64,000 bases of DNA from Hydra vulgaris. Taxonomy: Eukaryota; Cnidaria; Hydrozoa; Anthoathecata; Hydridae. Shown here one piece after another: positions 15,325-59,338 of the stretch. Position numbers and translations under genes: made by a program. Positions within the stretch are counted from its first letter, which is position 1, and each line of letters begins with the position of its first letter. The stretch lies in the NCBI RefSeq assembly GCF_038396675.1, contig NC_088920.1:65789501-65853500 (forward strand), written 5' to 3'. The notes under the pieces are model-generated. The model worked only from the letters and a program-made list of their open reading frames with translations. It made no database searches and was not told the origin of the DNA.

Positions 15325-15381
15325 AAAAACCACAGCAATTTCGAACAGCGACTTTAGCTGTTCGAAATTGCTGTGGTTTTT
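15325..15381. repeat. Perfect hairpin, 25-bp arms
   Basis: The arm 15325-15349 (containing ccacagcaatttcgaacagc) is exactly complementary to 15357-15381 around the 7-nt loop gacttta. It sits where the left TIR arm of the enclosing element stops matching the right arm. Confidence 0.9.
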
Positions 15382-15749
15382 TTAACTAAAAACCTAATTA
15401 TTTAAAAAAAAAAAATTTCTTTTTTTACAACCAAAGTTTTTAAATACATACAGTATTGGACAAAACATTTGCAACCAACATCGAACAATGCTAAAAAGTG
15501 TTCCTAATTTTACATGTCTTAAAAAAGAAACGAATTATATTACCACAGCAAACAGTTCAGGAGTCTGGAGTCATAGCATGCCATGACATAAGCAATCAGC
15601 TGACAGGTGACAGCACACAGGCAGAATTTTATTGACAAGTGCCATTTTGCAGCGGACAAAACAAGTGCAACTTTTTTGGTTTGTTTCATTTTCTTAAGTC
15701 TGGTCCGTGTCAACGTCACGGAAGTTTTTTAATAATTAAAGGAAGTATC

Positions 15750-15850
15750 CAGAAGTTTCCAGAAGAAGCATCCAGAAACATTCAGAAGCATCCAGAAGCA
15801 TTGAAAAAAAGCATCTAGAATCTTCCAGAACAGGTTCACTTTACTATATA
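15750..15850 (+). promoter_or_regulatory. CATCCAGAAG tandem motif and TATA-like box of the Tc1 element
   Basis: Between 15745 and 15825 the words ccagaag and catccagaa recur about six times. They are followed by tatataaaag near 15845, about 280 bp before the transposase frame. The position fits a pol II promoter; this is inference from motif alone. Confidence 0.4.
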
Positions 15851-16128
15851 AAAGACATGTAAATCGACATGTAATTCAGTCAGTATTTGGAAGTCAATCA
15901 GTCAGTATTATCAAGACAGTTTATCGAAGTGAGTTTTATCAAAGTGTTTTATCGAAGAACATCAATACAAGAAGTGAAATACAACAAGTGTTTCATTACA
16001 TCAATACAGTCCACATCCAACCAAGACGTTGTGTTCCACAGAGCATTATTGTATCATCACAAGGTAAATGTAACACGGTAAACCTTGATAAGCGTGATTA
16101 TTTATTTTTATTATTTTTATGACTTCAA

Positions 16129-17142
16129 GTGCAAAAATGGCTCCCGACAGTCTTGGATTTGGAACTAAGAAAGAAAATTATTGGCGATTACGTAAGTGGA
16201 ATGTCACAAAAAAGTATTTGTGATAAATATCGCGTGAAAAAATGGACCGTATCAAGACTATGTTCCAAATATCGTTCTACGGGGAAGTTAGCAGCAGATA
16301 ACAAAGGTGGAAGACCGCGTTCCACCACTTCTAGAGAGGATTCTATGATCGTCAGATCCGTCAAGAAGGATCCCTGGATATCATCAGTCGAGATACAAAA
16401 GCAATTAGAGCTGCCTGCATCGGACCGAACAATCAGACAACGTGCTGAAGAAGCCGGAATGTTTTCTCGACGCCCTGCAAAGAAACCGCTGATCTCATTA
16501 AAAAACCAGAAGAAAAGACTCCTGTTTGCTACATCTCATATTGACTGGAATGTGCAGAAATAGCGAACTGTCCTGTTCAGTAATGAATCGAAGTTCAACA
16601 TCATTGGAAGCGATGGCATTTGCCGTGTACGTCGACCGGCCGGAAAACGCCTCGATTTACGTTACTGCCATAAGACCGTGAAGCACGGTGGAGGCAATGT
16701 AATGGTCTGGGGGTGTTTTTTTGCTAACGGTCTAGGTCCAATACATCGAAACGATGGAATAATGGACCGTTTCATGTATAAAAATATCGTGAAAGATGTT
16801 ATGTTACCTCATGCTTAATGGAATATGCCAATAAAATGGGTTTTTCAGCAAGACAACGATCCAAAACACACTGCAAAAGTAGTCAAGCAGTGGTTTCAAG
16901 ACAACCACCTATCGGTGATGGATTCGCTGCCTCAATCTCCGGATCTCAACCTTATCGAGAACCTGTGGGTGATCGTCATCCGCAGAATTATTCGTGAAGG
17001 TGTTCGTAATAAGGATCAACTGTTTGAACAAATCCAAAAGGCCTGGGCAGCGATTCCACAAAGTTTCATTGATCACCTGATCGAATCTATGCCTCGAAGA
17101 TGCAAGGTTGTGATCGACAACAAAGGATTCGCCACGAAATAT
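16129..17142 (+). pseudogene. Tc1-type transposase (two stops, first catalytic Asp changed)
   Basis: The single frame reads an HTH DNA-binding region (MSQKSICDKYRVKKWTVSRL), a GRPR motif (GGRPRSTT), the middle block VKHGGGNVMVWGCF, then QQDNDPKHT (second Asp) and DLNLIENLW (Glu). In-frame stops occur at 16561 (TAG after VQK) and 16816 (TAA after PHA). The first catalytic residue reads FSNESKF where relatives have SDES, an Asp-to-Asn change that would abolish the DDE triad. There is no in-frame ATG near the start and a TGA lies just upstream, so either a short 5' exon joins near 16129 or the start is lost. Length is about 340 codons, normal for the family. Confidence 0.9.
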
Positions 17143-17400
17143 TGATAGCGAAATACAGCTTGGTCAACATTTTGTCGAGTTGAACTTGTTTTGTCCAGAA
17201 GGAAGTCAACTTTTTTTAATACTTTTGATTAATTTATTAATTTTCGTGTACAAATAATGAACTTTGTGATGAATAAAACTTGAAGAACTTTGTCTCTAAA
17301 CAGTTACATAGTTATTTCTCTAAATTGAAAAAAATGCAGCACTTTTATATAAAAAAACTAAATTAGCATTCTTTAGTTGCACTCGTTTTGTCCGATACTG

Positions 17401-18009
17401 TATATATTAACGAAGAGCTTATCAATTATATAATTAAAAAATTTTTTTTGATTGCGAAGACTAATTACATATTTAAAAAGGAAATCAATTACTAAAGTTT
17501 CTAGTTTTAACAGTAAACTGCTTCGCCATTTTTTTTAATAAGCTAATTTAATGCGTATGCTCACAATGAAATCCTATGCTTAAATCGCCGTGACCTAAAA
17601 GCGTTTGAGGTCGGCAAAAAAACGCTTACCTTGTTTCTATGTTTTATGATGAGACCTTTGATTCAAACTTTTTTTGCCGACCTCATTTTTCCTAATTCCG
17701 TGGTTTGAACATACCAAAACAGTGTCTCAAACAGTGTCTTATTTTTTTGTAAATTCCTTTTATTATTTAAAATATATTTTTTTATATCAGATTTTCTTCA
17801 TATTGTTACAAATTTGAACAAAAAGAAAAAGTTAAGTTTATAGAGCTTTTTTTTTTCATAATAAATACTGAGCCAACTTTTTTTTTTTTCTTAAACAAAA
17901 AAAAGTAGCACAATCCTTTTCTAAGATCGTCAAACCCATAATGACAAACCTCTAATTGTTGGGTAAATTTAACAATAGCAATCATTAAAACTTCAGAAAA
18001 AGCTGAGCG
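17401..18009. repeat. AT-rich spacer with a 17-bp perfect inverted repeat
   Basis: The arms tgaggtcggcaaaaaaa (17606-17622) and its exact complement (17669-17685) are separated by 46 nt. No coding sequence; long T-runs. Confidence 0.7.
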
Positions 18010-19176
18010 CTACGTCGATCATCAGTAGTTTTTGCTTTAATTTATTCTTAAACTCATTAAGCGTAGAAATTTTTTTAAGTTCATTAGTTAATATTTTATT
18101 CCATAATTTCGGCCCTCTTGTAGAAATTTAAAATTCGGTCGCCGCAAAATAACTTTTGGGTTGAATATAACTGTTATTTGAAAATCTGGTGAGATATCTA
18201 TTCTGATTTATTTTGAATAATGGGTAAAATATTTTAGGAGATATATTTTTATTAATTTTGAACATAAATATAAGAACTTGATAGACATTTTTTTGATAAA
18301 CATTCGTTATATTTAAATTAACAAATAATGCTTGGGAGTGTGTATAACGGCCCACATTGGAAATGATTGCATGCTTTTATTTATTAAATAGTTTTTTTAT
18401 TTTATTTTTATTTGTACTGCACCAAGCAATATTTGCATAATTAAAATGGCAATGAATGAACGAGAAATATAAAAGCTTTAAGCAAGTTGGATTTAAAAAA
18501 GGCTTAGCTCTGCATAGCAGGCCTGTGTTCCTTAAGATTGTATTTTCGAGATATTGTATGTGATCTCTCCACGTCACATTTTCATCAAGAAGCACGCTGA
18601 GAAATTTTAAAGTGGTTTCTCTTTTTATGTCCTGATTAGCAATACAAAGTTTTGGAAGTTTCAAGGGAATTTTATCTCGGTCATGAAAACGATGGAAAAA
18701 AGTATATTTTGTTTTGGTAACATTTAAAGATAATTTGTTTGCATTAAACCATTCAGTAAGATTTAATAGCTCATTGTTTACTGACTTAAAAAGAATATTT
18801 ATATCATTATGTACATAAAATCGATTTGTGTCATCTGCAAATAAAATTGTATCTAGTTCAGTACAAGCTTTGCTTAAATCATTAATAAAAATGAGAAATA
18901 GGAGTAGCCCTAATATAGATCCCTGAGGAACCCCACATGTTATGTTCATATTAGTTGTTTTACCTTCATTATAAGAAATGTATTGTTTTCTATTTGACAA
19001 ATAGCTTTTAAACCACGCAGTATTTATATGTTTAATACCATAGTTTTCTAATTTTGTTAATAAAATGTAATGATCGACAGTGTCAAAAGCCTTACTGAGA
19101 TCAATAAATACACCTAATGTATATTTATTTTCATCAAATGATTTAAAAATATCATGAACAAGATGAACAATAGCCT
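18010..19176 (-). pseudogene. CR1/L2-like LINE reverse transcriptase (5'-truncated)
   Basis: The minus strand encodes most of an RT: AIVHLVHDIF, FIDLSKAFDTVDH (palm motif A), GVPQGSILG (motif B), LFADDT (catalytic FADD), then the thumb region FIHCHFNYANIAWCS and the C-terminal KISTRGPKLWNKIL near 18110-18070. Defects are few: one stop after LFNK (about 18374) and a frame change near 18125. RT copies the LINE RNA at a nicked target. The N-terminal endonuclease is missing, because the element starts abruptly at 19176 against a SINE fragment. The intact FADD and few lesions suggest a younger copy than the others here. Confidence 0.85.
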
Positions 19177-19819: not shown

Positions 19820-20994
19820 TTTGCTATGTCCCAGTGGCTAAAGTCACGCCCCGCTGTTCGAAACTTATTAAACAATTTAACCTTGTTAAACTTACAATTA
19901 AACCTTGTTAAACTTACAACCCGCTTGTTTGGGGAGGGCATAAAGTTTATATAGTCATAGCTTTAGAACGTTAAAAGTATGCAAAATTATATTTTAAGCC
20001 TATTAATGTTTATAAATTTTGTAAATGCTAAAAAAAGGTAACTCACAATTAGGATATTTTATTGCTAAGTTCATTAAAAAAAAAGTTGAAATGTGAGTTA
20101 CGAATACAGAATGTGCGGTAAAAACTCTGTTTAAAAAGGTTCGTATTACAAAACGGCCCCAAAAGAACGGCCTTTTTTTAACAAGGTTTGTGTTTTGGTG
20201 TTTAGGTTTTGAGAGTGCGTTGCTAATAAAACAAAAAGTTTTCTAAAAAAAAACTTTATTACTAAAAAGTAACATTTAGTCCTAAAAACGTGCTATGTGC
20301 ACGAACTATAAGTTGTGCCACAACGAGTAGCTCAAGCATATAGAAGCATACAGACTGACTGTTTTTGCCTCTATTCTACAAAGTCCGCGCCACCCTCCCC
20401 TCTTAGTTTAAGGTGGTAATTAAAATCGAAAAATTCATTTTTTCAAAAATTTAATTTTTAGCTAGTACAATTATTCTAAATTCCATTTTTTTCTTGGTTA
20501 ACAAAAAAAAACCATGATATCCACTTCTAGTATTTGTTTTAAATTATTCGATATCAATTTTTATCCATAGCAACACTTTGTTTATTCCGTTACTACGCGT
20601 CTTTACAATAAAAGTTATTCCACAAAAAGCAATAAACCCATCTCACTATCAACTGTACGAAAGGAATATTGTTATTTAGTTACTGCTTCTTGTTTATTGA
20701 CTCGATTTATGCGCATGCATTGCGCATAAATCAGTTTTAACTCTTTTCGGTCCAATGTCCCGCGTGACGGGACATCATGAAATTGTCGTTGCGGTCTAAT
20801 GTCCCGTCCCATGGGACATCTACTATGATGATGTTTATACAGCAAAAATTATCTTTTAAAGCTAACTTGGACAATTTGCTAGGTTCAATTGGTAATATTA
20901 TAGTGTGTTTTTAATATAGTGCTTTTCAGTAACATTTTTTAATTGTCTAACCTTACTTATACTCTTAGAAATTTTTATAAAAATTTATTTAGAA

Positions 20995-22753
20995 ATGACA
21001 AGAAAACGTTATACAACTGAAGAAGTATTGAAGGCATTGGATAAAACAAGTACTGAAAAGCGACAGTATATACAATTTTAGTGAATCTGAGACTGAATTC
21101 TCAGAGATATCAGAGTCCGAGGAAGATATTGAACTAAATGAAATTGATGACAATGGACCTGCTTTAAACATAGGGTGGACAAAGGTAGTGTAAGATACTC
21201 AAGCATTTAAAGCATTACCATTTACAGTAGCAAATGTAGGCCCTCAGCATTCAATAAACTTAACACGTGAACTAGATTTTTTCAAGTTATTTTTTACTGA
21301 TGAGTTACTTGCAGATATTGTAACCGAAACTAATTGTTATGCTAATAATTTTTAATTTTTGACTAACTAATCGTTAGTCAAAAATTGAAAATAACGATTT
21401 GGAATCTCATTCTATTTGGCATAAATGGAAAGTTGTGACACTTGAAGAAATTCATGCTTACTTTGGTACTATTTTGAATATGGCTCTGAATGAAAAATCA
21501 AGTATAAAACATTATTTTTCTTGTGATTGGCTGAACTACATGCCATTTTTTCAGCAGTTTTCTCTCGAACTCGGTTTCTTCAGATACATTGGATGCTGCA
21601 CTAATCCCCACCATCAAATCCATCTAATAAACTGAATAGACGTGCAAGGAAAGTGCATCGTGTTGTATCAGAATTGAAAAGTTCCTGTTCTAGAAATTTT
21701 GTCCCATCTCGTAACATTGCAATTGATGAAAGTACTATTGGATTCAAAGGTAGAGTTGCATTTCGCATGTACAATCCACAAAAACCCACTAAGTGAGGCA
21801 TTTGTGTTTTTGTCTTAGCTGATAGTGAAACAGGTTATATTAGTTTCTTTGAACCGTATTATGGTAATTGAACTACCGAAAGTTTGGCAAAACCTATGAT
21901 GCAGTTTACAAGTCGAATCGTGTTACATTTGTGTGATGAGCTTTTATAGGCTGTCCAAGGGAGTGGTTACCACTTATTCACTGACAGATTATATACTATT
22001 TTTCCTCTTGCACAAGAGCTCCTCAAAATGAACATACAAACTACAGAGACAATAATTAAAAATAGAAAACAGTTACCTGAAGATATAAAAAAAACTCAAA
22101 TTAAAAAGGCATGAAGTTTCTGCATATGTACACTCTTCCAATGTTATGGTTTTGGCATGGCAGGACAGGCGACAAGTTCTGATGCTGAGTACGTTCCGTG
22201 ATTCAACAACTGAAGTTGCAAAACAAAGAATAAAACGAGGTATTGTAGACATTGATAAACCTACTGTTATTGTAAATTATTCGAAACATATGGGAGCTCT
22301 TAACCGAGCTGATCACTATTGTTCCAGCTATTCATTTCTACGCAAGTCTTTAAAATGGTGGAGAAAAATATTTTTCTGGTTGTTGGAAGTTACAGTTGTA
22401 AACAATTATATATTGTTCAATAAATTTTGTGAAGGCAATGGTAAAACAAACTTCGACACTTAACCTACAGGCAAAACCTCATTGAGCAATTAGTAGGAGC
22501 ATGTTAACAATTCAAGAACGAAGAGGAAGGCGATCATCATTAGATGACAATGAACGCCTCAACCAAAAGCCACATTTTATTGCACAAGTTCCAAGTAATA
22601 ATGCTAAAGACTGTTTAGTCTGCAGTGACAGAAAAACACAGGGTGTAGAAAAAAAACTGTATACTTTTGTAAAACCTGCACTAGAAAACTAGGACTACAC
22701 CCTACTGATTGTTTTGAACTTTATCATACAAAGACTGACTTTCGTTTAAAATA
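20995..22753 (+). pseudogene. piggyBac transposase, multiply disrupted
   Basis: The ATG at 20995 opens a frame with a Ser/Glu-rich acidic N terminus. The DDE_Tnp_1_7 blocks follow in shifting frames: HSIWHKWKVVTLEEIHAYFG (21405-21470), NIAIDESTIGFKGR (21715-21755) with the first catalytic Asp, a degraded FTDRLYT (about 21979) for the second Asp, LAWQDRRQVLMLSTF (22150-22195), and YSKHMGALNRADHYCSSY (22278-22330). The C-terminal cysteine-rich zinc domain is recognisable at 22610-22735 (CLVCSDRKTQG, then a TCT..LG..PTDCF region). piggyBac excises precisely at TTAA. Stops, frameshifts and a 14-bp hairpin at 21354-21386 inactivate it. Confidence 0.85.
21354..21386. repeat. Perfect hairpin in piggyBac coding sequence, 14-bp arms
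   Basis: aatttttgactaac (21354-21367) is exactly complementary to 21373-21386 with a 5-nt loop, inside the transposase coding region. Confidence 0.85.
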
Positions 22754-23118: not shown

Positions 23119-24945
23119 ATGGGTGGATCGAAAAGAAAAGAAGCGTCAAAAAGGCTATATCAAAATAAAAAATTAAAGTTTCATGGAAACAGATATAAAA
23201 AAAATTGCAATTTTAATGAAACTACTGCTATGCCTTCAGTTGATCAACTTCAGTTGTCAATTGACAACATTCCATGTTCATCATCCTTTAAGAATTTGTT
23301 TAACAAAGAGATTATACAGGATCCTCAAAATATAAGTGAAGACTTTAACTTTATTATGAATTTTATTTTACTGAAAAATGCAATAATGTTTCTCAAATGT
23401 CCAGCATGTGAAGAGTTAGTTAACTTGCAGTTTGATTCTTCAAAAAAATATGGCTTAAGTATTAGACTAAAAATTTGTTGCAATGGTTGTGAATGGGAAA
23501 CTACTTTTTTTTCGTCTACTACTATTGAAAAAAAGAACTGTAATGCAAAACAAAATTATCTAGTTAAAAATAAATGTGTTAGGCGTAAACCGTTTGACAT
23601 AAACACTCGTATAATAGTTGCATTTTGTGAAATGGGTAAAGGACTGTCAGCTATAAAAAACTTCTGTGGAATTATGAATATGCAACCGCCAATGAATAAA
23701 AACAGTTATAATAATACATTGCATATACTGTTGGATGTGTATCAAAGTTTAGTTGATAAAAGCATGAAAAATGCAGCCGATGAATTACGACCTATCAGTG
23801 AAACATCTAAAGATATTGCATGTGGGTTTGATGGATCTTGGCAGAAAAGTGGATATACATCGAACAATGGAGTAGTAACAGCTGTTGCTGTAGAAAATGG
23901 TAAATGTATTGACTTTGAAATTGAAACTAAAACTTGTAAGTTGTGTTCAATATGGGAGTTAAAAAAATACATACATCCTGTTGAATACACTGAGTTTCAT
24001 TATTTACATCATCAAAAGTGTCAAATTAGTCACACTGGTTCAGCTTCTTCTATGGAATCAAGTAGTGGAATAAAAATTTTTTTGCGTTCCAAAAAAAAAA
24101 CAATTTAAGATATACAACATTTCTAGGTGATGGAGATAGCAGTTCCTATGTTAGTGTTGTTGCTGTTAAGCCTTATGGAGATATTACAGAAATTAAAAAA
24201 GTGGAGTGCATTGGGCATATTCAAAAACGTGTTGGTACTGGCTTAAGAAATTAAAAAAAAAATTGTAAAGAAGTTTTATGTGATGGCAAAATGTTAGGAG
24301 GAGATCGTCGCTTAACAGAAAATGTGATAAATACATTGCAAAACTATTATGGCAAGGCAATAAGGCAGAACATTGGAAATTTATATGGAATGAAAAAGAG
24401 TGTTGCAGCTGTACTTTTTCACTGTTCTGAAAATTGTAATGGTGAAACACGCCATCAGTATTGTTTGCGCACCAAAGATTCGTGGTGCAAATTCCAGGCT
24501 AGGCAAACTGACTGGAAAAGTGACATATAAAGAAAATATTTGTATTCCTGCTTCTGTGTGTGATGCTATCAAACCAATATTTATGGACCTTGGTTCCGAT
24601 AAACTTCTTGAAAAGTATTTACACGGTAAAACGCAGAATCCCAATGAGTCGTTTAATCAATTGATATGGAAGCAATGCCCAAAAGATATATCTATTGAAA
24701 GAACTGTTCTAAGTATTGGAGTGGCATCATCTGTGCTAAATTTTAATGATGGTCAACAATTTTTAAACAAGTTGTTTAATGAACTTGGAATGATATTTGG
24801 TATAAATGCGCAAAATTATGTATTGCATAAGGGCACTAAACGAATATCTAAAGCAGAAAAGCAATGTACCCCTAAAGTAAAATCTAGAAGAAAAAAATTA
24901 GGAGCAATACGAAAAGGTTTTTGTTATCAAAATGAAACATTGTAA
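23119..24945 (+). pseudogene. Phantom/Mutator-type transposase (two to three frameshifts)
   Basis: The first frame, 23119-24108, carries a basic N terminus (GGSKRKEASKRLYQNKK), a zinc-binding CPACEELV...CCNGC region, the catalytic-type block ACGFDGSWQKSGYTSNNGV and HQKCQISHTGSASSME. The reading continues in another frame with FLGDGDSSSYVSVV and VECIGHIQKRVG (24122-24245), then MLGGDRRLTENVINTLQNYYG (24291-24350), and from 24400 in a third frame NPNESFNQLIWKQCPK to the end. These blocks define the Mutator/Phantom transposase family found in many invertebrates. The protein cuts DNA at long terminal inverted repeats. The shifts sit in A-runs near 24090 and near 24500. The coding sequence is otherwise well kept, so the element is fairly young. 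Confidence 0.8.
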
Positions 24946-28906: not shown

Positions 28907-29735
28907 ATCGTCTGGAAAAGTGATAAAACTTTTATAAGAATTGTTGATCTGTACAGAAAGTTAAAAAAAGATTGTAGCTTTCGTGAAGTTTGTTAAAGCA
29001 AATTTCACGAAAGCTACATTCGTTTTTGACGGTTATAATAACAGTTGCATGAATGGTTCTCATTCATGCGTTTGGTGGATGTGAAACAACATCAGGTATA
29101 CATGAAAAAGGTAAAGCTTCGACATTACGCCTTCAACAGAAATTAAAAACGATACAAAAATTGTACGACTGCTTCATGAACTTATCTAGTGTGGAAGAGG
29201 AAGTTGTTTATCATACTGTACAACGGAAAAGCTGATGATGCACTTTAAAAAATAAGATACAACACATATATGCAAACGGCTGCATCTTCCTCAGAAATTG
29301 TAAACCGAAACTACTACCTACGAAAAGGGCAGTGGTATGGTATTACAGTTTAAGAGTACGCCTTCAGGTTTGGGAGTGAAAAACGTTGAAGAAGTGTAGC
29401 TTGAATCTGTTGAAATGGGGTTAGAAAATTATAAGTAAAAAATTGGTACCCATTATGACCAACCAGGTATCTATTTTTTTTCTTATGGTGCTCATATTCT
29501 ATACTTAGAGCAAATATACAAAATTATATTAGATGTCACGGCAAATAAATGTCGAAGAGGCTATGTGGATCTAAGCTATGTTCGTGTCGAAAAAATAACA
29601 TTTCTTATGTTTCGGCATGTGGTGATTGCAAAGTTGTTGGTTGTGAAAACACAACTCAAAATGAACTCGACGATATTTATGATGACGACTCACTCGATGA
29701 CGGAAGCGTATTCGATATTATTTCAAGTCTATAAA
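28907..29735 (+). pseudogene. Cnidarian orphan-family protein, downstream exon with CXC-like cysteine cluster
   Basis: After the acceptor the reading is IVWKSDKTFIRIVDLYRKLKKD, then (after a hairpin) ATFVFDGYNN, LIHAFGGCETTSGIHEKGK (29055-29115), LPTKRAVVWYYSLRV (29310-29355), and a cysteine-rich end CGSKLCSCRKNN...SACGDC...GCEN (29560-29655). The last block resembles a Tesmin/CXC-type cluster (CxxxxCxCRK...C..CG.C...C.N). An acidic C terminus (ELDDIYDDDSLDDG) ends at 29735. The order HAF.GC.TTS, LP....A, CXC is characteristic of the same uncharacterised cnidarian family. Stops and shifts make it non-functional as read. Confidence 0.6.
28973..29018. repeat. Inverted-duplication hairpin inside the orphan-family exon
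   Basis: tgtagctttcgtgaa (28973-28987) is exactly complementary to 29004-29018, with further pairing in the 16-nt loop. Removing the extra arm gives the continuous reading CSFREATFVFDGY. Confidence 0.9.
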
Positions 29736-31237: not shown

Positions 31238-32230
31238 AAATGGACTCAAAACGTGAAAACAATTTTGAGTTTAATTCTTTTGACTTTTTTCAAACAATAA
31301 ACAATGAAACTGATTCAATTTGTTTTAGTAAAGCAGATGCTTTGTTTAACAATTGTTCTTATTTCTGTAACAATGAACTAAAATAAATTTCTTGAACGAG
31401 ATCGCTTAAATGTGATACATTTTAACATAAGAAGTTTAAAAAAGAATTTTAAGAATAATATTGAGGAAACTTTAAATATTTTCAACGTTATATGCCTAAC
31501 AGAAACTTGGTGTAGTTCTGATGAGGCTTTATCTAACTCGAATCTTCACCTGCCAGGTTTTAATCCTGTAGCGCAATCTATAGATTGTGCTACAGGATTA
31601 AAACCTAATCTAAATAAAAGATTAAAACACAATCTAAAGATTGTGTTACAGGATTAAAACCACGTAAAACAAAAAAACGAGGCGGTGGAGTACTTTTTTA
31701 TGTAAGTGAAAGAATGCATTTTATAAATAGGCCTGACATGAGTATTTTTGATGCCGATAAAGAAGTTTTAACAATTGAAATTTTAGCCAAAAAAACTAAA
31801 AATATACTTTTAAGTTGCTGCTATCGTCCACCATCTGGTGAAATAAATAGTTTCAAGTTCTTTTTAATTACTGATCTTATAAAAAAAATGTACAATAGAA
31901 AAGAAATTAAATTACTTAATTGGTGACATACATTTAGACGCATTAAAATATCACGTAAATTCCAAAATCAATAGTTTTTATAACGGTTTATTTAAAAATG
32001 GTGCAATTCCGCTAATCAATAAACCAACAAGAGTAACTTTAAAGTCAGTATCCTTAATAGATAATATTATGACAACAGACACTTTTAATGAATCTCTTAA
32101 AAAAAGGTTAATTAAAAATGATGTTTCAGATCATTTTCCTATCTTCTTGTCAATAAATACTGATATTGAACAATTACAAATAAAAAAACAAGTTATCCTA
32201 AAACGCTGTTTCAGTGAAGTAAATATTGCA
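31238..32230 (+). pseudogene. LINE A ORF2, APE endonuclease domain
   Basis: The ATG at 31240 begins the ORF2 N terminus (ENNFEFNSFDFFQTINN), followed by VIHFNIRSLKKNF (31411-31449), VICLTETWC with the catalytic Glu, GVLFYVSERM, SCCYRPPSGEI, then GDIHLDALKYHVNS, NKPTRVT, SLIDNI and NDVSDHFPIF (the SDH active-site motif, about 32120-32150). APE endonuclease nicks the target for reverse transcription. A complex inverted duplication at 31556-31645 and several frameshifts break the frame. Confidence 0.8.
31556..31645. repeat. Inverted duplication in LINE A endonuclease
   Basis: 31556-31580 and 31581-31605 are complementary over 25 bp with one mismatch and no loop. A further copy of the arm (acacaatct...agattgtgttacaggatta) follows at 31627-31658. 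The duplication replaces the expected continuation after LPGFNPVAQ. Confidence 0.9.
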
Positions 32231-32625
32231 TAATTTAATGAACAAAATCATTACTACATTGGAAACATATAAATTTTTCGTCGGAAGCAAATGTAGTTTA
32301 TGACTCATTCTTTAGAACATTCTATTAAGTTTATGATGCAAACTTTCCACAATACTAAGTTAACTTAAACAAAAAAAGCTTAAAGTCACCATGGATTACT
32401 AAAGAACTCAGGAAATCTTCCAAAGTTAAACAAAAATTGTATATAAAGTATTTAAAAACAGATAAAAATAAGGAAATTTATAAAAATTATGTAAAGCTTT
32501 TTGAAAGTCAAAAAAAAAAACCTAAAAAAAAAATACTATTCAAACTTATTAGAGAAGTTTAAGAATAATGCTAAACACACATGGCAAATTTTAAATAAAA
32601 TCACTGGCAATCAAAAAATTAAAAC

Positions 32626-34360
32626 ATGCAACTAACCAAAGTTTATTTAAACAATGATGATTTTTTATATAATCCTAAAGATATAGCAAATCAAATAAGT
32701 AACTTTTTTGTAACTATTGGTCCAAACTCAGCAAAAAGTATTCCAATTATAACTAACTCAAGAAATGATTTAAATCTTCCGATAATTTCTATACTTAATA
32801 ACTTTTAACTTTCCATTAAAGAGTTTGAATTTGCTTACAAAATGCTAAAAATCAATAAAGCGATGGGCCCAGGTTAAATAAATGGTAACATTTCAACTAA
32901 AGATAGCCAAAGTTACACCAATATTTAAAGGGAGGGGGGGGGGTATTATCAAATATAACTAATTATCGTTCAATTTCTGTACTTTCTGGTTTTTCAAAGA
33001 TTTTTGAAAGGATCCTTTACAATAAAATTTATGATCATCTTTCTACAAAAAAAGTACTAAATACAACCCAATATTGGTTTAAAAAAAATAATTTCACTGA
33101 ACACGCAGTGCTTCATTTGACTAAAAAACTAAGAAATTATGGAATCGGGGTAATTTTCTAAAATTACTTAAGAGCAATTTAAGCGATTGTAAACAGTATG
33201 TGCAAATTGATGTATCCTCTTCAACAAATTTAGAAGATATAACATGTGGTGTCCCCCAAGAGTCTATACTAGGACCACTTCTTTTTTTCATTTATATTAA
33301 TGATCTTTAAAATGCCTCAAATTTAAAAACAATAATGTTTGCTGATGACACAGACTTTTTTCTGTCTAGCAATAATATCATAACACTATTTAACAACATG
33401 AACATAGAGCTGATTAAAATTTCAAAATGGTTTAAGCCAAATAAGTTATCAATTAGCATAAAAAAAATTAAATGGACTCTATTTCATCCAAAATCCAAAA
33501 AATATCTTTTGCCAAATGATATGCCTCAAACATATATAGATAATATTCAAATAAAACAATCAAAAGTTATACTTTTTCTTGGTCTTTTTATCGATGAAAA
33601 CCTTACGTGGAAAAATCATATTGAAACATATAATAATAAAAATTAATTCATGATTTTATAATATTAAAAATTAAATTTTCCCGTGCTTTTAGAAGAATTT
33701 GTAGTAATAAGCGCTTCTTGTTATTTTTTAATAATAGATGTTATATCTATTTTTTTTTACCAATTTTACGTTTGTTTATTTTATATAATTTTAAACTATA
33801 GAAAGTGCTTATTTTTAAATAAAATTTTATATCTACGGAATTTATCAAGGGGCTTGGCGATAAGACATATTAGTCTTCTTCTCGCCCCTGCTACATATAT
33901 ATCTTGTTATTAACATTCGGTTTGTATATATTTAAACAGCAAAAAAAAAAAATAAAAAAAAAAAAAAAAAAACCTTGCGCAACAAAGTTTCAAAAAATAT
34001 TGGAGTATTATATAAAGCGAGAAGTTTTGTAAATAGACACGCATTAATTCAACTATATTACTCACTTATTCAATACCATCTAAATTATTCAAATATCGCA
34101 TGGGGTAGTGCTAAAAAAAGTCAATTAGATCCTCTTTATTGGCAACAGGAGCATCTTTCACGACTAATAAACTTTAAAGATCGTTTTACTCATGCAAAAC
34201 CACTTTTATTCGTTCTTTGCTTTATATTTAAATGTAAGATAAACTTAACTCCTATACCTTTTCAAAATTTAAATGCGATAAAGCCCAAAAACAAATATGA
34301 TCTAAGAAATGACAATTTCATTTATCAACATTATTCGCATACAAATTTTGGTAGATAAGA
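32626..34360 (+). pseudogene. LINE A reverse transcriptase, interrupted
   Basis: Fragments in order: DIANQISNFFVTIG, FEFAYKMLKINKAMGPG, a short TNYRSISVLS-like block near 32965, then GVPQESILGPLLF (33249-33290), MFADDTDFF with the catalytic FADD (33335), LGLFIDENLTWKNHIE (33570-33620), and after an insertion VSKNIGVLYKARSFVN, SNIAWGSAKKSQLDPLYWQQE and NFKDRFTHAKPLL (33985-34205). Many stops. The FADD core is intact, but the gene cannot be translated. Confidence 0.8.
33650..33975 (+). mobile_element. 5'-truncated LINE 3' end inserted in LINE A
   Basis: About 320 bp separate the codons for KNHIETYNNK from those for NKVSKNIG. The insert ends in a long A-run (33942-33972), preceded by ggggcttggcgataagac and gtcttcttctcgcccc, a complementary pair (33850-33891) forming a 3' stem-loop of the kind used for RT recognition in several LINE clades. 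Confidence 0.65.
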
Positions 34361-34391
34361 TATAAGAGACAAAGGTCTCTTATATCTTATC
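34354..34391. repeat. Perfect hairpin in LINE A, 16-bp arms
   Basis: gataagatataagaga (34354-34369) is exactly complementary to 34376-34391 with a 6-nt loop. It interrupts the coding block NFGRY...RGAFLWNQ. Confidence 0.9.
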
Positions 34392-34420
34392 GCGGAGCTT
34401 TTTTGTGGAACCAAATAGTT

Positions 34421-36787: not shown

Positions 36788-39700
36788 TTAAACAATTTGT
36801 TTGCTGTTTTTAAAATTTTTCAAATAGTTTAATACTGCGATATTTTTCTTTGTTGACATTGTATCTGGATGGTTGATACCTAAAATTTCAGTTTGTATTT
36901 TATCAACAGAATAATAAATTTGTAAAACTTCGTTATATTTTCCAATTTTGCTCAAACAGCTTGCGATATTGTGTTTTGTTGACATTGCATTCGGATGGTT
37001 GATACCTAAAATTTCAGTTTGTATTTTATCAACAGAATAATAAATTTCTAAAGCTTCATTATCTTTTCCCATTTTGCTCAAACAGTTTGCGATATTATTT
37101 TTTGTTGACATTGTATCTGGATGGTTGATACCTAAAATTTCAGTTCGTATTTTATCAACAGAATAATAAATTTCTAAAGCTTCATTATCTTTTCCCATTT
37201 TGCTCAAACAGTTTGCGATATTATTTTTTGTTGACATTGTATCTGGATGGTTGATACCTAAAATTTCAGTTCGTATTTTATCAACAGAATAATAAATTTG
37301 TAAAGCTTCATTATATTTTCCCATATTGTACAAGCAGAGTGCGATATTACTCTTTGTTCCTATTGTAGACTGATGGTTGATACCTAAAATTTCAGTTTGT
37401 ATTTTATCAACAGAATAATAAATTTCTAAAACTTCGTTATCTTTTCCCATTTTGCTCAAACAGTTTGCAATATTATTTTTTGTTGTCTTTGTATCTGGAT
37501 GGTTGATACCTAAAATTTCAGTTCGTATTTTATCAACAGAATAATAAATTTGTAAAGCTTTGTTATATTTTCCCATATTGTAGAAACAGAGTGCGATATT
37601 ACCTTTTATTCCTAATGTAGACGGATGGTTGATACCTAAACATTCAGTTTGTATTTTATCAACAGAGTAATACATTTCTAAAGCTTCGTTATATTTTCCC
37701 CTATTGTACAAACAGAGTGCGATATTACTTTTTGTTCCAATTGTAGACGGATGGTTGATACCTAAAATTTCAGTTTGTTTTTTATCAACAGAATAAAAAA
37801 TTTCTAAAGCTTCGTTATCTTTTCCCATTTTGCTCAAACAGTTTGCGATATTATTTTTTGTTGACATTGTATCTGGATGGTTGATACCTAAAATTTCAGT
37901 TCGTATTTTATCAACAGAATAATAAATTTGTAAAGCTTCGTTATATTTTCCCATATTGTACAAACAGAGTGCGATATTACTCTTTGTTCCTATTGTAGAC
38001 TGATGGTTGATACCTAAAATTTCAGTTTGTATTTTATCAACAGAATAATAAATTTCTAAAACTTCTTTATCTTTTCCCATTTTGCTCAAACAGTTTGCAA
38101 TATTATTTTTTGTTATCATTGTATCTGGGTGGTTGATACCTAAAATTTCAGTTCGTATTTTATCAACAAAATAATAAACTTGTAAAGCTTCGTTATATTT
38201 TCCCATATTGTAGAAACAGAGTGCGATATTACCTTTTATTCCTATTGTAGACGGATGGTTGATACCTAAACATTCAGTTTGTATTTTATCAACAGAATAA
38301 TAAATTTCTAAAGCTTCGTTAGATTTTTCCATTTTGCTCAAACAGTTTGCGATATTACTTTTTGTTCCCATTGTATTCGGATGGTTGATACCTAAAATTT
38401 TAGTTTGTATTTTATCAACAGAATAATAAATTTCTAAAGCTTCGTTATCATTTCCCATTTTGCTCAAACTGAGTGCGATATTATTTTTTGTTGCCATTGC
38501 ATTCGGATGGTTGATACCTAAAATTTCAGTTTGTATTTTATTAACAGAATAATAAATTTGTAAAGCTTCGTTATATTTTCCCATATTGTACAAACAGCTT
38601 GCAATATTACTTCTTGTTGCCATTGCATTCGGATGGTTGATACCTAAAATTTCAGTTTGTATTTTATCAACAGAATAATAAATTTCTAAAGCTTCGTTAT
38701 ATTTTCCCATATTGTGCAAACAGAGTGCGATATTATTTTTTGTTGCCATTGTAATCAGATGGTTGATACCTAAAATTTCAGTTTGTATTTTATAAAGAGA
38801 ATAATAAATTTCTAAAGCTTCGTTATATTTTCCCATAGCGTACAAGCAGAGTGCAATATTATGTTTTGTATAAAGCGTGAATTCATTATCATCACTATAA
38901 GTTTCTGTATTAAAATTTTGAACTGCTCCTAATATTTCGATTGCTTCTTCAAATAAACCTTTACTTAAAAATAATTTTGCAATAGCTGTCGTCATACGAT
39001 GGAAAGTTTTCGAAATTCTTTCTTTATTGGTACGAAACATATAGAGAAAATGAAAAGCAAAATGGTTTCCGTAATCCCGGTGATCTTTTACTTCCTTCAA
39101 TTCATCTTGAAAATAATTTCCAATTAGATCAAGATAAGTATTTGTACTTGAATTTCTCTGTTGAAAACATTTACATGTCAACTGTGTAAGTTCGTGTACC
39201 GAATATTTTTTATCATCAAAACAGTTTAGTAAAGAATAACTCATTAGTAATCCAATGGCTTCATCTATTAAATATTCATCGTTTATTTTCATATGATTTG
39301 AGATTTGGATTATAAATTGTTTACTGATGTTTTGAATCTCGCAATGAGATAAACAGTTTAATATATTAAATGGAAAAGGTTTATTTTTTTCTAATTTTAT
39401 TAAAACTAAGTTAATTGCTTTTATTGCAGACTTTGATTCTTCTTCGGTTGGAAAGTTATTATTGTCTAATATTTCTGATGGTCTTGATCTATATCGATCT
39501 ATGTATTTTTCTATCGAAATTTTATGTATATTTATATATTTTATTGCTTGAGTAATAGCAAATGGATGATAACCAAGTTCTTTAATTAAGTTTCTTATGT
39601 TTTCATCTGTGTTTTCTTTAATATTATTTTTTACATAAGCAATTGCTTCTTCAAAAGAAAAAACATCAACTAGCATTTTGTTTACATTATTCGACCAAAT

Positions 39701-40134
39701 TCTCCATTGGGAGGTAATCAACGTGAAAGAATTCGGTTTTCTTGAAATGTACATTGATAAATTTTTAACACTTTCATCGTCGACATTGTCAAAAATATAC
39801 AAGGTCTTTTCATTTTTATAATAGTTGTGAATTTTTTCAACGATCACTTCTATGTTCAAATAATCACCTTTCGAATCATGAACTTCGAATCCTATCATTT
39901 GGCATTGGTTTCTCATTGAAGTTTGAAACTTTCCAAATGTTGCGTCAATCCAAACAAAGTTTTTATAGAAGTTATAAAATATTTCACAATATTTTCTGGC
40001 AATATGTGTCTTTCCGACACCAGACATTCCATATAATACTAATATTGACTTGCTTGCACCTTGTAAAAAATAATAATGAATTTCACGAAGGAGTTTCTCG
40101 CGTGAAAATAAATTTTCTGAAAAAGGTTGAATAC
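36788..40134 (-). CDS. NB-ARC STAND NTPase with 16 TPR units (NLR-like), 3' exon
   Basis: One open exon of about 1,114 codons, the longest undamaged coding stretch in the window. An acceptor (ttttag) precedes 40134; the first residues are IQPFSENLFSREKLLREIHYY. Numbering from the Met at 40027: Walker A GMSGVGKTHI (Lys6), Walker B TLYIFDNVDD (Asp80), an ITSQWRIWS sensor-like motif (104-112) and GYHPFA (152-157) in the place of the NB-ARC GLPLA motif. A winged-helix-like region and a helical stretch follow, then 16 units of 42 residues with the core NIALCLYNMGKYNEALEIYY, of the kinesin-light-chain TPR type. Such STAND proteins act as cytosolic signal switches; NB-ARC/NACHT receptors with TPR or WD40 repeats are expanded in cnidarians and thought to sense stress or microbes. 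The N-terminal effector domain must lie in upstream exons to the right of 40136; none was identified. A function in immunity is inference. Confidence 0.85.
36820..38870 (-). repeat. 126-bp TPR-coding minisatellite, 16 units
   Basis: Each unit encodes 42 residues and units are nearly identical in DNA (ggttgatacctaaaatttca recurs every 126 bp). A higher-order period exists: the block tctttgttcctattgtagac at 37351 recurs at 37981, exactly 630 bp (5 units) apart, and the 5-unit blocks share their unit-specific variants (CLGINHPST, GINHPDT, GINHQST). Confidence 0.95.
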
Positions 40135-45589: not shown

Positions 45590-46585
45590 ATTTCTCGTGA
45601 AATAAAACAATCCACTTATTAAGCAATTGTTCATCTTGGTCAAAATATTTTTCTGGCATTCGATAAATATAAATATACGTTAGAATATAAATATACGTTA
45701 TTTATTGATCTTAGCATAGCATTTGACGCTGTTGATTATTATATTCTCATAAATAATCTAGAAAATTACGGGATTAAACATATGAATATTAAACAGTTTT
45801 AAAGCTATTTGTCAAATAGGAAGCAATATATTTCTTTTAAGCTACGAAGAAACTAATAGTATGAATAAACACTGCCGGGTTCCCCAAGAGTCAATTTTAG
45901 AACCACTCTTCATTTTTTAATTTATATTAATGGTTTACGCAAATCTTGTAATTTACTAGAAGTTATTTTTATTAAAATTTCCAGGTGTACTCCTTGACGA
46001 AAACGCAACTTGGACAGTCTCTTGATAAAATATATATCTTGAGATTTTACAAGTGTCCAAACGTAAGTAGGGCACTTGTAAAATCTCAAGATACATCGAC
46101 CTACTTTATAAAGCGAGACCGTTATTAAATCAAAGTTGTTTAAAATTGCTATATTTCTCTTTTATTCATTGTTATTTAGGTTATGCAAATATAACTTGGT
46201 GTAGCGCACGTTAAAACAAAATTAAAAAACTCTTTAATAAACAAAAACTTGCAGTTAAAATATTATCTAAAGTAGGCCGTTTTACACACTCGAAAGAACT
46301 AATTATGAAGTTGAATACTTAAAGTCTACCAACAAAGCGTTTTTCATTTTTTAATTTTAACCTTTAAAGTTAATACAAAAATAACACTTAACATTAATTC
46401 GTTATTCATAATAAATAAGCACAGATACTTAACCAGATGCTTAAACAACATTATATTCAGCTCAAACGTTTTTTTAGTTTAACTGAATTTTCAATATTTA
46501 TTAGAGGACTACTGGTATGGAATAAAATTATATCTAATAAACTTATAAGTCTTGAAACTCTTAACAAAATCTCACCAAAATTAAA

Positions 46586-48187: not shown

Positions 48188-48189
48188 TA

Positions 48190-48816: not shown

Positions 48817-48817
<1 letters not shown>

Positions 48818-50785: not shown

Positions 50786-52278
<1,493 letters not shown>

Positions 52279-54936: not shown

Positions 54937-55999
54937 AGATGTTTTCGAAACTGGTATGCAATGGTGAAATCCTCGACTTCCTGGTATTGTTTTTCCCTTC
55001 TCAAATCGTTTATTTTATGTAGCTCTAACATTAACCATAGTTCCTTTATCAATTTTAAAGAACTTTATTGTGAGCATTTTTAGAGTGCAAAATTCAAACA
55101 TTGCATCGATTGTTAGTATTTGATTTTTCTTTGTACGTTCTCTTGCTGTTGTTCGTTTTACTGTCCCACCTATTGCATCACAAGAATATCTGCATCACAA
55201 AAGACTAGTTGCAAAAGAATGTCCATTCAGCTTCCAATAAAAAATCTTTTGAACGATGGCATAGATTTAGAAAACTTTTATAATTTTTATACTGTCCTCC
55301 ACATACATCAGAAACGTAATACAATTTGAAAATTAAAGAAGGGTTTCTTCAATATAATATCATAAAATATATTTGAAATCAAATTATCTTTTATTTATTT
55401 TTTATACACTTTATAAACATTACAACAATTGCCATTTTTCTTTTCAAATCTTTTTCCAAAGTAGTGAAAATGGTGGTTACAAATGCTGGATAGTTCTTCA
55501 CAGGCACACAACTCAGATCTCCATAAAATGTTTTGACGAGTATCAGTGTCTAGGTCATGTAGTAAAAAATCTCTTTATTTCTAGAATATGTGGTTTTATG
55601 GCATTCTGACTTCAAAACTTCACCAATATCATATGAAATCATTTTGATAATGAATTAAAAAATGTTATACTTGCAAATTTAAAAATGCACAATTATTAAT
55701 TGCATTATTTATGTAGAATTAATTGCAACATTTAAATTAGATGAATATATCTGAATTCAGCAATTAAACTTTGATAATTGGAAAAGACAAGGAACCAAGG
55801 ATCAAAAAGGAAATAAAAAAATGCATTAAAAAACTTTCATAATTTAAGAACCGCTTAGATTTAGATTGGAATTATCACTTTTTCCTAAAGTACTTTGGCG
55901 AAAATTGAAAAAAAAATCAGAGAATTTAGGGTTGTATGGCCTGGTTGTTATGACATGAAATTACTCTTAGGAAAAGAAATACAAACTACACGTTTATTT
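54937..55999. other. Interior of the 3.36-kb element
   Basis: Small open frames (55120-55329, 55373-55609) have no recognisable motif. At 55928-55968 a copy of the element's own terminus (gtatggcctggttgttatga) occurs in the same orientation as the right end, suggesting nested or tandem insertion of two family members. Confidence 0.5.
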
Positions 56000-56613
56000 C
56001 AGGAGCGGATCCACGATTTTTTGGTGTTTGAGTTAAATAACTTCCAGTTAAGTTCTATACTCCAAACCTTTGAATGTTCATACTTATGTCATTTAAAGAT
56101 GTTTTGCAAAAAGTTGCGCTACAAAGAAACTAGGAACAAAAATACCCTAAAAATTAGAAATCTAAAACGTGGGGGAAATTTATTTTTTGAAATATGAATT
56201 CTAATATCCTAAACTAGGTAGAAATTTCTTTACGGTAATAAATTTCATTGAAAAATAATGATTTGTTTAGAAATTATACCTAATTGAACAACCCCCTCGT
56301 TTTAAGGGGGTTGTAAACTTTACATGGTTATACCTTTTGAATGCCAAATGATTTTTTGACAAAAATTTAAAAATATGTACAACTTTTAGTCTTATTAAAG
56401 CAAATAATTTTTCTGTTTGAAAAAATCAATTCCCCTCACGTTTGTGCGGATGATTTCTACTTTATAGGGTATTTTTGTACCTCGGCTCTTTGCAGGGCAA
56501 TTTTTTGCAAAACATCTTTAAATGACATATGTATGAACATTCAAAGGTTTGGAGTATAGAACTTACCTGGAAGTTATTTAACTAAAACACCAAAAAAGCG
56601 TGGTCCGCCCCTG
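56000..56613. mobile_element. hAT-like palindromic MITE, 614 bp
   Basis: The tips CAGGAGCGGATCCACG (56000) and CAGGGGCGGACCACGC (inward from 56613) resemble hAT CAGxGGCGGA ends. The arms are inverted over about 130 bp (gttctatactccaaaccttt in both), and a central hairpin (accccctcgttttaaggggg) lies at 56285-56310. No matching 8-bp target duplication is visible. Related to 48870-49430. Confidence 0.75.
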
Positions 56614-56623
56614 CAATTATATA

Positions 56624-56875
56624 TCGTCAGCTTGGAATACAAGTGTCGTATCGAAAATTTTTTATACTATTTATAAATATGAAATTTTCTAATTTCTCTA
56701 AATTTAAGGATGTGTAAATATAAAAAATGATTTTTGTATAACGTTACAATATAACATTATACAAAAGTAATTTTTTTCATTAACATAATGTTAAATTTTC
56801 ATAAATTAAATAACTATATTTTTATAAATAATTTTAATAAATTATCGATACGACACTTGTATTCCGAGCTGACGA
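56624..56875. mobile_element. Palindromic MITE, 252 bp (copy B)
   Basis: It has the same tips as 10465-10715 (TCGTCAGC(T/C)(T/C)GGAATACAAG, then GTCGTATC), flanked by TA. The arms are inverted throughout. The two copies differ in their centres. Confidence 0.85.
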
Positions 56876-57417
56876 TATACATTTTTAGTACAAAAGTAAA
56901 ATATTTACAAAACTATGCATTTGGCATAAATGATTTTTTCTCACAATGTTCTTCAAACATACAATGATCTTATTTGAAATTTTAGGCTTAAAAAATTTAC
57001 CGCACACCTAAAAATTTTACAGTGGCAGGTGTCCATTATTTTAACATTTATAATTAATATTTATGTACTTTTTAATTATAAAATGAGTTTTTTATTTATA
57101 TATTTAAAATGAGTTTTTTATTTATATATTTAAATTCCTCACCTAGAGATTAACTAAGTTACTTATTTTTAGAATTCACATGTTTAAAGACTTGGTTTTA
57201 TAAGGAGAAATGTAAATTTAAAAATGGCGGAAAATGACCAAATCAATAATAGTTGCTAAAATTAAAACAACCATTACTCACGAACCGTTGGGAGTTAGAC
57301 CTTGAAATTTTGGGATTTGTCTTATTTTATAATGTACTAACTATGGTATAAATATAAAGAAAATCCAAGGGCATAGGGTTGCAAGGCCTGGTTGTTTTGA
57401 CATGGAATTACTCATTT

Positions 57418-59338
57418 GCAAAATAATATTTTAAAAACAAGTTTAAAGGAAAAGAGAATAAATTATATAATAGGTGACTTTAATTTAAATTGTTTTGAGT
57501 ACCACGTAAACAGTAACATTAAAAAGTTTTACGATGATTCATTCCAAAGTGGAGCTATACTGCTTATTAACAAACCAACTAGAGTAACCTCAACGTCAGC
57601 GACCTTAATTGACAACATAATATCAACCGATATTTTTAAGGAATCTCTTAAAGTAGGTATAATTAAAAATGACGTTTCGGATCATTTCCCCATTTTTTTC
57701 TCCATTAACATTGAGAAAAAAATAATAAAAAAGCAAGAAAAAGTCTTTTACAAGCGCTTTTTCAATGATAATAATATGGCATCATTTAAAGATCATCTAT
57801 TCGAAGCAAATATAATGTACGACAGATTCTTTCAAACCCTTTATGAAATTTACGATGTAAATTTTCCAAAACGTCAATTTATAAAAACCGATAAAAGTTT
57901 AAAGTCACCTTGGGTCAATACAGATCTTAAGAAATCCTCAAAAAAAAGCAAAAGCCAGAATTTTGAAAAATTCTGGCTTTTGAAAAAAAAGAATTTGAAA
58001 ATGCATTTAAAATGCTGAAAAATAACAAAGCAGTTGGTCCTGATGACATAAATTGTGACAGTTATAGATTCATACGACGATATAAATTATATTCTTTTCA
58101 AAGTTTTTAATGGTTCAATTAATCAAGGAATTTTTCCAGACAAAATAAAAATTGGCAAGATTACACCAGTATTTAAAAGTGGTGAACCCTCAAATGTCTG
58201 TAATTATCGTTTAATATCTGTCCTCTCTGTTTTTTCAAAAAGTTTAGAGCAATTTTGTTTAACCAAATATACAATTATCTAACTATTAATAATATACTTT
58301 ACATGAACCAATACGGCTTCAAGAGAAACAACTCTACAGAACATGCAATAATTCATCTCACTCGAAGCATAACTGAATCATTTGAAAAAGCAGAACTTAC
58401 TTTAGGCGTTTTTATAGACTTGTCTAAGGCGTTTGACACAATTGACCATAAAATACTTTTTTTTTTTTTTTTTTTTAAACTTGAACATTATTGAATGGTA
58501 TTACTGGAAAAGCTTTAATGTTACTTAAAAGTTACCTGAAAAGTTGGAAACAATATGTCCACGTCGAAGGATCTTCTTCACCTTACTTTCTTAATATAAT
58601 CTGTGGAGTTCCACAAGGATCTATACTTGGACCCTATTATTTCTAATTTATGTAAATGATCCCTATCAAGCCTCCAAATTAACAACAATCATGTTTGCTG
58701 GTGATACTAACCTCTTCTTATAATGTAATAATATCAGTAAACTTTTTAAAGATATGAATATTGAGTTAACAAAAATCTCTAATTGGTTCAAATCAAACAA
58801 ACTATCGCTCAATATTGAAAAGACTAAATGGACTCTCTTTTATCCATCATTTAAAAAACGTTTACTCCAAAGTGATATGCCGATAATTTATATTGATGAT
58901 ATTCAAATAAAAAGAGTAACGTTTACAAACTTTTTAGGTATTATTATAGATGAAAATCTATCCTGGAAAAATCATATCAGAAACTTATGTAGTAAAATTG
59001 CAAAAAGTATTGGAGTCTTTTATAAAGTAAGAAGCGTTATGAATAAATATCTACTAATTCAACTTTATTACACTTTTATATATTATTATATTAATTATGC
59101 TAATATTGCGTGGGGAAGCGCATCCAAAAATAATTTAAAACCACTTTATTGTCAACAGAAGGACATTGCACAACTTATAAATTTCAAAGATCGTCTTGCT
59201 CACTCAAAGCCTCTCTTAATTAATATGAATACTCTTAATATATATCAAGTAAACGTTTTTAATGTTCTTTGTTTTATGTTCAAGTGTAAAACCAACTTCT
59301 CTCCAACCCCCTTTCTTGATTTATATTCTTTAAAATAA
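57418..59338 (+). pseudogene. LINE B ORF2, endonuclease end and reverse transcriptase
   Basis: 57418-58018: NNILKTSLKEKRINYIIGDF, INKPTRVTSTSATLIDNII and NDVSDHFPIFFSI (SDH active site). A deletion then joins the linker (TDLKKSSKKS) to KEFENAFKMLKNNKAVGPDDI. RT fragments: FKRNNSTEHAIIHL and FIDLSKAFDTIDHKI (58310-58455), a T-run of about 20, GVPQGSILGP (58600-58630), MFAGDTNLF (58690-58718), then LSLNIEKTKWTLF, DENLSWKNHI and NIAWGSASKNNLKPLYCQQ to 59338. The catalytic FADD reads FAGD, so one catalytic Asp is lost. Frameshifts lie between blocks. Confidence 0.85.
57949..57982. repeat. Perfect hairpin at the LINE B deletion junction, 16-bp arms
   Basis: caaaagccagaatttt (57949-57964) is exactly complementary to 57967-57982 with a 2-nt loop. 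It lies exactly where linker sequence jumps to RT sequence. Confidence 0.9.

What the first reader, a model, noticed from the sequence alone, without database searches (positions are those of the whole stretch)
15325..57982. Recurrent perfect hairpins that interrupt coding sequence: local inverted duplications
At least seven hairpins with 14-25-bp near-perfect arms and 0-17-nt loops occur at 15325-15381, 21354-21386, 28973-29018, 31556-31605, 34354-34391, 46035-46093 and 57949-57982. Six fall inside unrelated coding sequences (piggyBac, orphan gene, four LINE sites). At 28973-29018 deleting one arm restores CSFREATFVFDGY; at 46035-46093 it restores the reading into LYKAR. Each looks like a snap-back copy of flanking sequence, not an insertion. 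This suggests a frequent replication or repair template switch in this genome.
Basis: partly seen in the sequence, partly recalled or inferred. Interest (0 to 1): 0.78.

Follow-up and report, generated by a model that had tools for sequence, protein, structure and literature searches.

The report
Fold-back copying errors leaving DNA hairpins
Short stretches of DNA in this animal genome (probably Hydra) were copied backwards next to themselves during replication or repair, leaving perfect hairpins that sister copies of the same repeats lack; the process is known, but the many examples here make this genome a good place to study it.

Summary
All seven hairpins are present and far beyond chance: perfect arms >=14 nt with loops <=20 nt number 14 in the window, against 0.03-0.1 expected. 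I aligned each site with sister copies from the same genome (911.5 Mb, 15 contigs; probably Hydra vulgaris AEP, inferred). At all seven, the sisters compared carry one arm in place and lack the inverted copy. Hairpins at 872 and 5173 are derived too.

Events are private inverted copies of about 14-28 adjacent nt (sites 3, 5, 872), multi-step inserts (2, 4, 6), or fold-backs at deletion or rearrangement junctions (1, 7, 5173). Ten more private events lie in fetched sisters; fetched loci hold about 95 such hairpins per Mb, of all origins. They occur in LINE-like, piggyBac-like, Tc1-like and an unnamed family, so reverse transcriptase alone cannot explain them.

Best explanation: short-range template switching. 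Known kind; new setting, apparently high density. Against 'frequent': 0 of 11 insertions in two young families were long inverted copies. The pathway is unresolved.

The parts
15325..15381 (.). Site 1: 25-nt arms, 7-nt loop. Left arm is in place in one repeat family; right arm is a fold-back copy at a junction with another repeat family
   Evidence: Left relatives w19906, L108, L109 (and more distant L107, L110) continue differently after this point; right flank matches L111/L112
21345..21375 (.). Site 2: 31-nt insert in a piggyBac-like relic: imperfect inverted copy of the downstream ~20 nt plus a direct copy of upstream AACTAATCGTT
   Evidence: 33 listed sister rows span the point and are 19-40 nt shorter (29 of them recounted, 23-40 nt); five sisters aligned, none has the insert, and all five have the C that the window has lost upstream but kept in the copy
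28958..28985 (.). Site 3: 28-nt insert (left arm), reverse complement of the right arm's ancestor, in an unnamed multi-copy family that looks intron-bearing
   Evidence: Twelve sisters aligned (L025 on the right side only), none has the insert; the left arm keeps a base found in 11 of the 12 and lost in the window's right arm
31555..31660 (.). Site 4: net +83 nt multi-step inverted insert in a LINE-like stretch; left arm in place, right arm copied and repeated
   Evidence: 38 of 38 listed copies with both flanks have 4-10 nt where the window has 91; four aligned
34352..34371 (.). Site 5: 20-nt insert holding 17 nt of reverse complement of the adjacent sequence, apparently in the same LINE-like copy as site 4
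   Evidence: 29 of 29 fetched sisters lack it: 25 match a strict pattern, 4 differ by small changes only
46017..46077 (.). Site 6: hairpin core, net about +39 nt, on a weak family inverted repeat (TCTTGA..TCAAGA) in a LINE-like stretch
   Evidence: 27 of 27 listed copies with both neighbouring pieces have 20-23 nt where the window has 61; seven sisters aligned
57949..57982 (.). Site 7: hairpin filler at a junction where about 390 nt of a LINE-like family are missing
   Evidence: 23 listed copies with both flanks have 275-460 nt (21 copies) or about 3 kb (2) where the window has 36; 8 further left-flank rows had no right flank listed; four fetched
897..910 (.). Further site: 14-nt inverted insert making hairpin 872-906
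   Evidence: 37 of 37 listed sister rows that span the point are 10-22 nt shorter; three aligned, none has it
5173..5216 (.). Further site: left arm is an inverted copy replacing family sequence (net loss about 37 nt)
   Evidence: Sisters with both flanks; four aligned, all lack the left arm

Best explanation
The hairpins are mutation scars left by short-range template switching. During replication or gap-filling repair the growing 3' end left its template and briefly copied a strand a few nucleotides away in the opposite direction (its own strand folded back, or the complementary strand). It made a reverse-complement copy of roughly 14-60 nt and then returned to the original template, leaving a simple insert (sites 3, 5, 872), went through several switches (2, 4, 6), or rejoined elsewhere, leaving a deletion or rearrangement junction (1, 7, 5173). 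SHOWN: inverted copies of adjacent sequence, absent from the sisters compared, in unrelated repeat families. INFERRED: that a polymerase made each copy in one event, and that replication-type switching rather than end joining made the simple inserts.
For: Derived state at 9 of 9 window hairpins that could be compared with sisters. Simple inserts: site 5, 29 of 29 sisters without it, and L065, 17 nt, with 10 sisters shown lacking it. Inserted copies at sites 2 and 3 keep bases found in sisters but lost in the window's source. Independent events in other copies: L004, L011, L012, L013, L020, L043, L065, L089, L010, L100 with a 62-nt inverted insert. Multi-template inserts at sites 2, 4, 6. Found in LINE-like, piggyBac-like, Tc1-like and unnamed families.
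Against: No hinge shows a pre-existing stem clearly longer than random positions do (10 hinges tested, sites 6, 7, 1, 872 and 5173 not among them; smallest fraction of random positions as good 0.27), so the classical quasi-palindrome trigger is not demonstrated. In two young families 8 of 11 insertions >=8 nt are wholly or largely direct copies, 2 are unexplained and 1 (12 nt) shares 9 nt inverted; none is a long inverted copy. The source of site 6's inner core was not found in the sisters searched. Support is thin for L020 (one spanning sister) and L004 (two).
Confidence: 0.88

Rival explanations
1. The hairpins are inverted templated insertions made by polymerase-theta end joining of double-strand breaks (snap-back synthesis on a resected end). 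This is a variant of template switching, so its odds overlap with the best explanation.
For: Three of nine window events (1, 7, 5173) and L004, L020 coincide with deletion or rearrangement; sites 2, 4, 6 are iterated. A Pol theta review states that snap-back synthesis can give inverted templated insertions (passages of PMC9962433).
Against: The same review gives 3-10 nt for templated insertions; here inverted copies are about 14-62 nt, and several events lose no sequence (site 5, L065).
Confidence: 0.3
2. LINE reverse transcriptase switched template on its own cDNA during retrotransposition.
For: Sites 4-7 and L065, L089, L100 are in LINE-like stretches.
Against: Same signature in a piggyBac-like relic (site 2), a Tc1-like family (L043; the Tc1 label comes from a window relative with Pfam HTH_Tnp_Tc3_2, and the match of L043 to it was read by eye) and an unnamed family that looks intron-bearing by eye (site 3, L004, L010-L013, L020).
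Confidence: 0.05
3. They are small palindromic mobile elements (MITE-like) inserted into the relics.
For: Some hairpins here look like that: 6244-6285 and L034 share flanks with several loci.
Against: At each listed site the insert is the reverse complement of its own neighbour, differs from site to site and is absent from the sisters compared.
Confidence: 0.03
4. Assembly or sequencing artefacts (fold-back reads).
For: Reads could not be inspected.
Against: At sites 2 and 3 source and copy have diverged since copying, the copy keeping the sisters' base; arms are about 14-60 nt, not read-length; a published assembly of matching size used HiFi reads, Nanopore gap filling and Illumina polishing (PMC12220107 passages), though identity with this genome is inferred.
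Confidence: 0.03

Closest known systems
Short-range template switch mutations in great apes (four-point model; PMC7954356, passages read)
   Same: Reverse-complement copy of nearby sequence explains a local mutation cluster; creates perfect inverted repeats
   Different: Here in a probable Hydra genome, visible as one-arm inserts in repeat copies; apparent density high, but the methods are not comparable (4,017 significant events over six ape comparisons)
Template switching creating and maintaining RNA hairpins (PMC8794818, abstract and opening text read)
   Same: One event can create a perfect stem from one arm
   Different: Here in transposon relics; no functional RNA was looked for
Quasi-palindrome mutations in yeast (PMC3820800, PMC8604942; search listing with start of abstract only)
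   Same: Extends identity between arms of an inverted repeat; by eye sites 3, 6, 872 and L065 have weak family stems
   Different: The ten hinges tested do not have longer stems than random positions
Polymerase-theta templated insertions (PMC9962433, passages read)
   Same: Inverted copies of flanks at break junctions, iterated templates
   Different: Review gives 3-10 nt; here about 14-62 nt and often without deletion

Membership tests
Short-range template switch mutation | Derived sequence is a reverse-complement copy of sequence within about 100 nt | tested here: met
   site 6's inner core excepted (source not found)
Short-range template switch mutation | Ancestral (sister) sequence lacks the copy | tested here: met
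   9 of 9 comparable window sites (5 of 14 window hairpins not compared); 10 sites in fetched loci
Short-range template switch mutation | One switch explains the change better than independent mutations (formal likelihood ratio) | not tested
   No pair-HMM was run; inverted inserts of 14-62 nt make independent origin implausible
Short-range template switch mutation | Arises during DNA replication | not testable with these tools
   Needs mutation accumulation or strand-bias data
Quasi-palindrome correction | Pre-existing imperfect inverted repeat at the hinge | tested here: inconclusive
   Seen by eye at sites 3, 6, 872, L065; none of 10 tested hinges stands out from random positions
Polymerase-theta end joining | Short (3-10 nt) templated insertion | tested here: not met
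   Inverted copies about 14-62 nt
Polymerase-theta end joining | Dependence on Pol theta | not testable with these tools
   Needs a mutant
MITE / hairpin mobile element | Same hairpin present across the members of a family | tested here: not met
   Absent from the sisters compared at nine sites; by contrast 20704 is family-wide
MITE / hairpin mobile element | Target-site duplication around the insert | not tested
   Not examined systematically; inserts are complementary to their own flank

The most novel reading that the evidence does not exclude
This genome (probably Hydra) has an unusually high rate of fold-back template switching, very roughly one event per 1,000 substitutions in young repeat copies, with short perfect hairpins numbering on the order of 100,000 genome-wide (extrapolated from 222 kb of fetched loci and the window, other hairpin types included). 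That would make it a standing source of new perfect stems (for example small-RNA precursors) and point to an altered replication or repair pathway.
Probability: 0.3. Interest if true: 0.7.

Novelty: new member of a known kind. Interest (0 to 1): 0.45.

Why it matters
Template switching is often hard to see because it looks like clustered mutations. Here many sister copies of each repeat serve as the before picture, so single events can be read base by base and placed in one copy. If the density seen here (about 95 short perfect hairpins per Mb in fetched loci, 230 in the window, all origins together) holds genome-wide, rate, length and trigger could be measured directly; it also warns that a perfect hairpin in such a genome is not by itself evidence of a functional RNA.

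Tried and rejected
Considered and rejected: LINE-only origin (cases in DNA transposons and an unnamed family); MITE insertion; chance; a requirement for a pre-existing long stem (one search gave no support). The ORF-restoration argument at 28973 was dropped because sisters show the other arm to be the insert. The first site-5 alignment had about half the sisters unturned; the counts replace it. The insertion census covered only the part of each family shared with one reference, so L065's event fell outside it; L043's is a rearrangement. The pair counts first made by hand were recounted. Eight paper searches were run; two gave no match. Those naming Hydra or Cnidaria with inverted repeats, hairpins or template switching (48: 1 paper; 89: 10 papers, 8 listed) showed no title or abstract start on such mutations in Hydra; a find in the main text of the Hydra genome paper PMC12220107 gave 0 for inverted, hairpin and template switch. 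Work outside this library may exist.

Limits: about 40 candidates per genome search are scored; fetched loci were chosen by similarity to hairpin flanks, so densities are not from a random sample; no second strain or reads were available; the Markov expectation is not a control from another animal genome. Of the 14 window hairpins (arm >=14, loop <=20) nine were compared with sisters and five were not (6999, 7094, 7166, 28852, 6244). Of 21 rows, nine (eight sites) are derived, one (L034) looks like an element, and eleven had no spanning sister, were low-complexity or were not resolved (L003, L009 two, L013 one, L031, L050, L055, L069 two, L072, L081).
Full report
OBSERVATION. The seven hairpins exist as described. 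A scan of the window, with 3,608 nt of simple repeats masked, finds 14 perfect hairpins with arms of at least 14 nt and loops up to 20 nt, 8 of them with arms of at least 16; Markov sequences of order 1, 3 and 5 give means of 0.03-0.1 and 0 (30 replicates per order). The genome is 911.5 Mb in 15 contigs. From size, contig number and repeat content I infer Hydra vulgaris strain AEP: a published AEP assembly has 596 Mb of transposable elements as 65.3% of the genome, i.e. about 913 Mb (PMC12220107, section 5 read). The identity was not tested directly.

POLARITY. Each site was compared with sister copies from the same genome. Site 5: sisters read TTTTGG directly into AAGGTCTCTTATATCTTATC or a near variant, whereas the window has 20 extra nt holding the reverse complement of the next 17; 29 of 29 fetched sisters lack the insert, 25 by a strict pattern and 4 with small differences. 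Site 3: twelve sisters were aligned (L025 on the right side only) and none has the left arm; it keeps a base present in 11 of the 12 and lost in the window's right arm. Site 2: 33 listed rows span the point and are 19-40 nt shorter (29 of them recounted); the 31-nt insert is an imperfect inverted copy of the downstream sequence plus a direct copy of an upstream 11-mer, which keeps a C present in 5 of 5 aligned sisters and lost upstream in the window. Site 4: 38 of 38 listed copies with both flanks have 4-10 nt where the window has 91 (four aligned). Site 6: 27 of 27 listed copies with both neighbouring pieces have 20-23 nt where the window has 61 (seven aligned). Site 7: 23 listed copies with both flanks have 275-460 nt (21) or about 3 kb (2) where the window has 36, so the hairpin is filler at a deletion; 8 left-flank rows had no right flank in the list (four fetched). 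Site 1: the left arm belongs to one repeat family (w19906, L108, L109) and the right flank to another (L111, L112); the right arm is a fold-back at that junction.

MORE OF THE SAME. Hairpin 872-906: 37 of 37 listed spanning rows are 10-22 nt shorter and three aligned sisters lack a 14-nt inverted insert. Hairpin 5173-5216: four aligned sisters lack the left arm. In the fetched loci private events were found at L004, L011, L012, L013, L020, L043, L065 and L089, L010 and L100, whose inverted insert is 62 nt. Support is thin for L020 (one spanning sister) and L004 (two). Fetched loci give 21 hairpins in 222 kb (94 per Mb; 22 in 226 kb); the window gives 14 in 60 kb. These counts include hairpins of other origin. 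Exact direct repeats under the same limits are more numerous (18 against 14 in the window, 65 against 22 in the loci; counted per shift).

NOT ALL HAIRPINS. The 12-nt-arm hairpin 20704-20732 is carried by its family's sisters. 6244-6285 and L034 look like terminal-inverted-repeat elements (the genome search for 6244 did not complete). The first shows that the comparison can return the other answer.

MECHANISM. The inserts are reverse complements of adjacent sequence, absent from the sisters compared, about 14-62 nt long, sometimes multi-part, sometimes at deletion junctions. That is the signature of short-range template switching. Because it occurs in LINE-like, piggyBac-like (Pfam DDE_Tnp_1_7), Tc1-like (by a window relative) and an unnamed family that looks intron-bearing by eye, reverse transcriptase is not the sole cause. 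A weak stem is visible at several hinges (872 GTTTT..AAAAC, site 3, site 6, L065), but in a test of ten hinges none stood out from random positions in sister sequence (sites 1, 6, 7, 872 and 5173 were not in the test), so the classical quasi-palindrome trigger is unproven. Pol theta end joining can yield inverted insertions, but a review gives 3-10 nt for templated insertions; it may explain the junction cases.

RATE. In two young families (29 and 28 copies; 36.8 and 41.3 kb; 521 and 1,094 differences from the majority base) 11 insertions of at least 8 nt were found: 8 wholly or largely direct copies, 2 unexplained, 1 of 12 nt sharing 9 nt inverted; none a long inverted copy. L065's and L043's events lay outside that alignment or were rearrangements. 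Over a longer span of the first family, 49.7 kb aligned with 1,064 mismatches to one copy, L065 is the one such event found. This suggests very roughly one event per thousand substitutions, from one or two events; it is not a measured rate.

VERDICT. The mechanism is known; the probable Hydra setting and the apparent density are the new parts. The most useful follow-up is a whole-genome strain comparison with the published ape method.

Noticed in passing
31400-34400: Sites 4 and 5 appear to lie in one LINE-like copy, about 2.8 kb apart (listed matches on C9 near 20.226-20.229 Mb show a similar spacing), so one relic may have taken two separate fold-back events.
   Followed up: partly
L100 (C3:36239840-36240130): Sister of site 4 with its own private 62-nt inverted insert; self-inverted over 122 nt at 98%.
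   Followed up: yes
36788-40027 (-): A single 1,079-aa open frame with an NB-ARC-like start (below Pfam cut-off) and many tetratricopeptide repeats.
   Followed up: no
61219-63458 (-): Open frames of 622 and 132 aa; the longer has no Pfam hit. By eye (recalled) a Penelope-like reverse transcriptase with a GIY-YIG-like end.
   Followed up: no
6999-7241: Cluster of palindromic TCTATAGAA units giving several overlapping perfect hairpins; looks like a repeat array, not the fold-back kind.
   Followed up: no
20704-20740: A family-wide hairpin near the end of a repeat that abuts the piggyBac-like relic.
   Followed up: partly
23119-24108: Mutator-like transposase open frame (Pfam PF20700, E 1e-37).
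   Followed up: no
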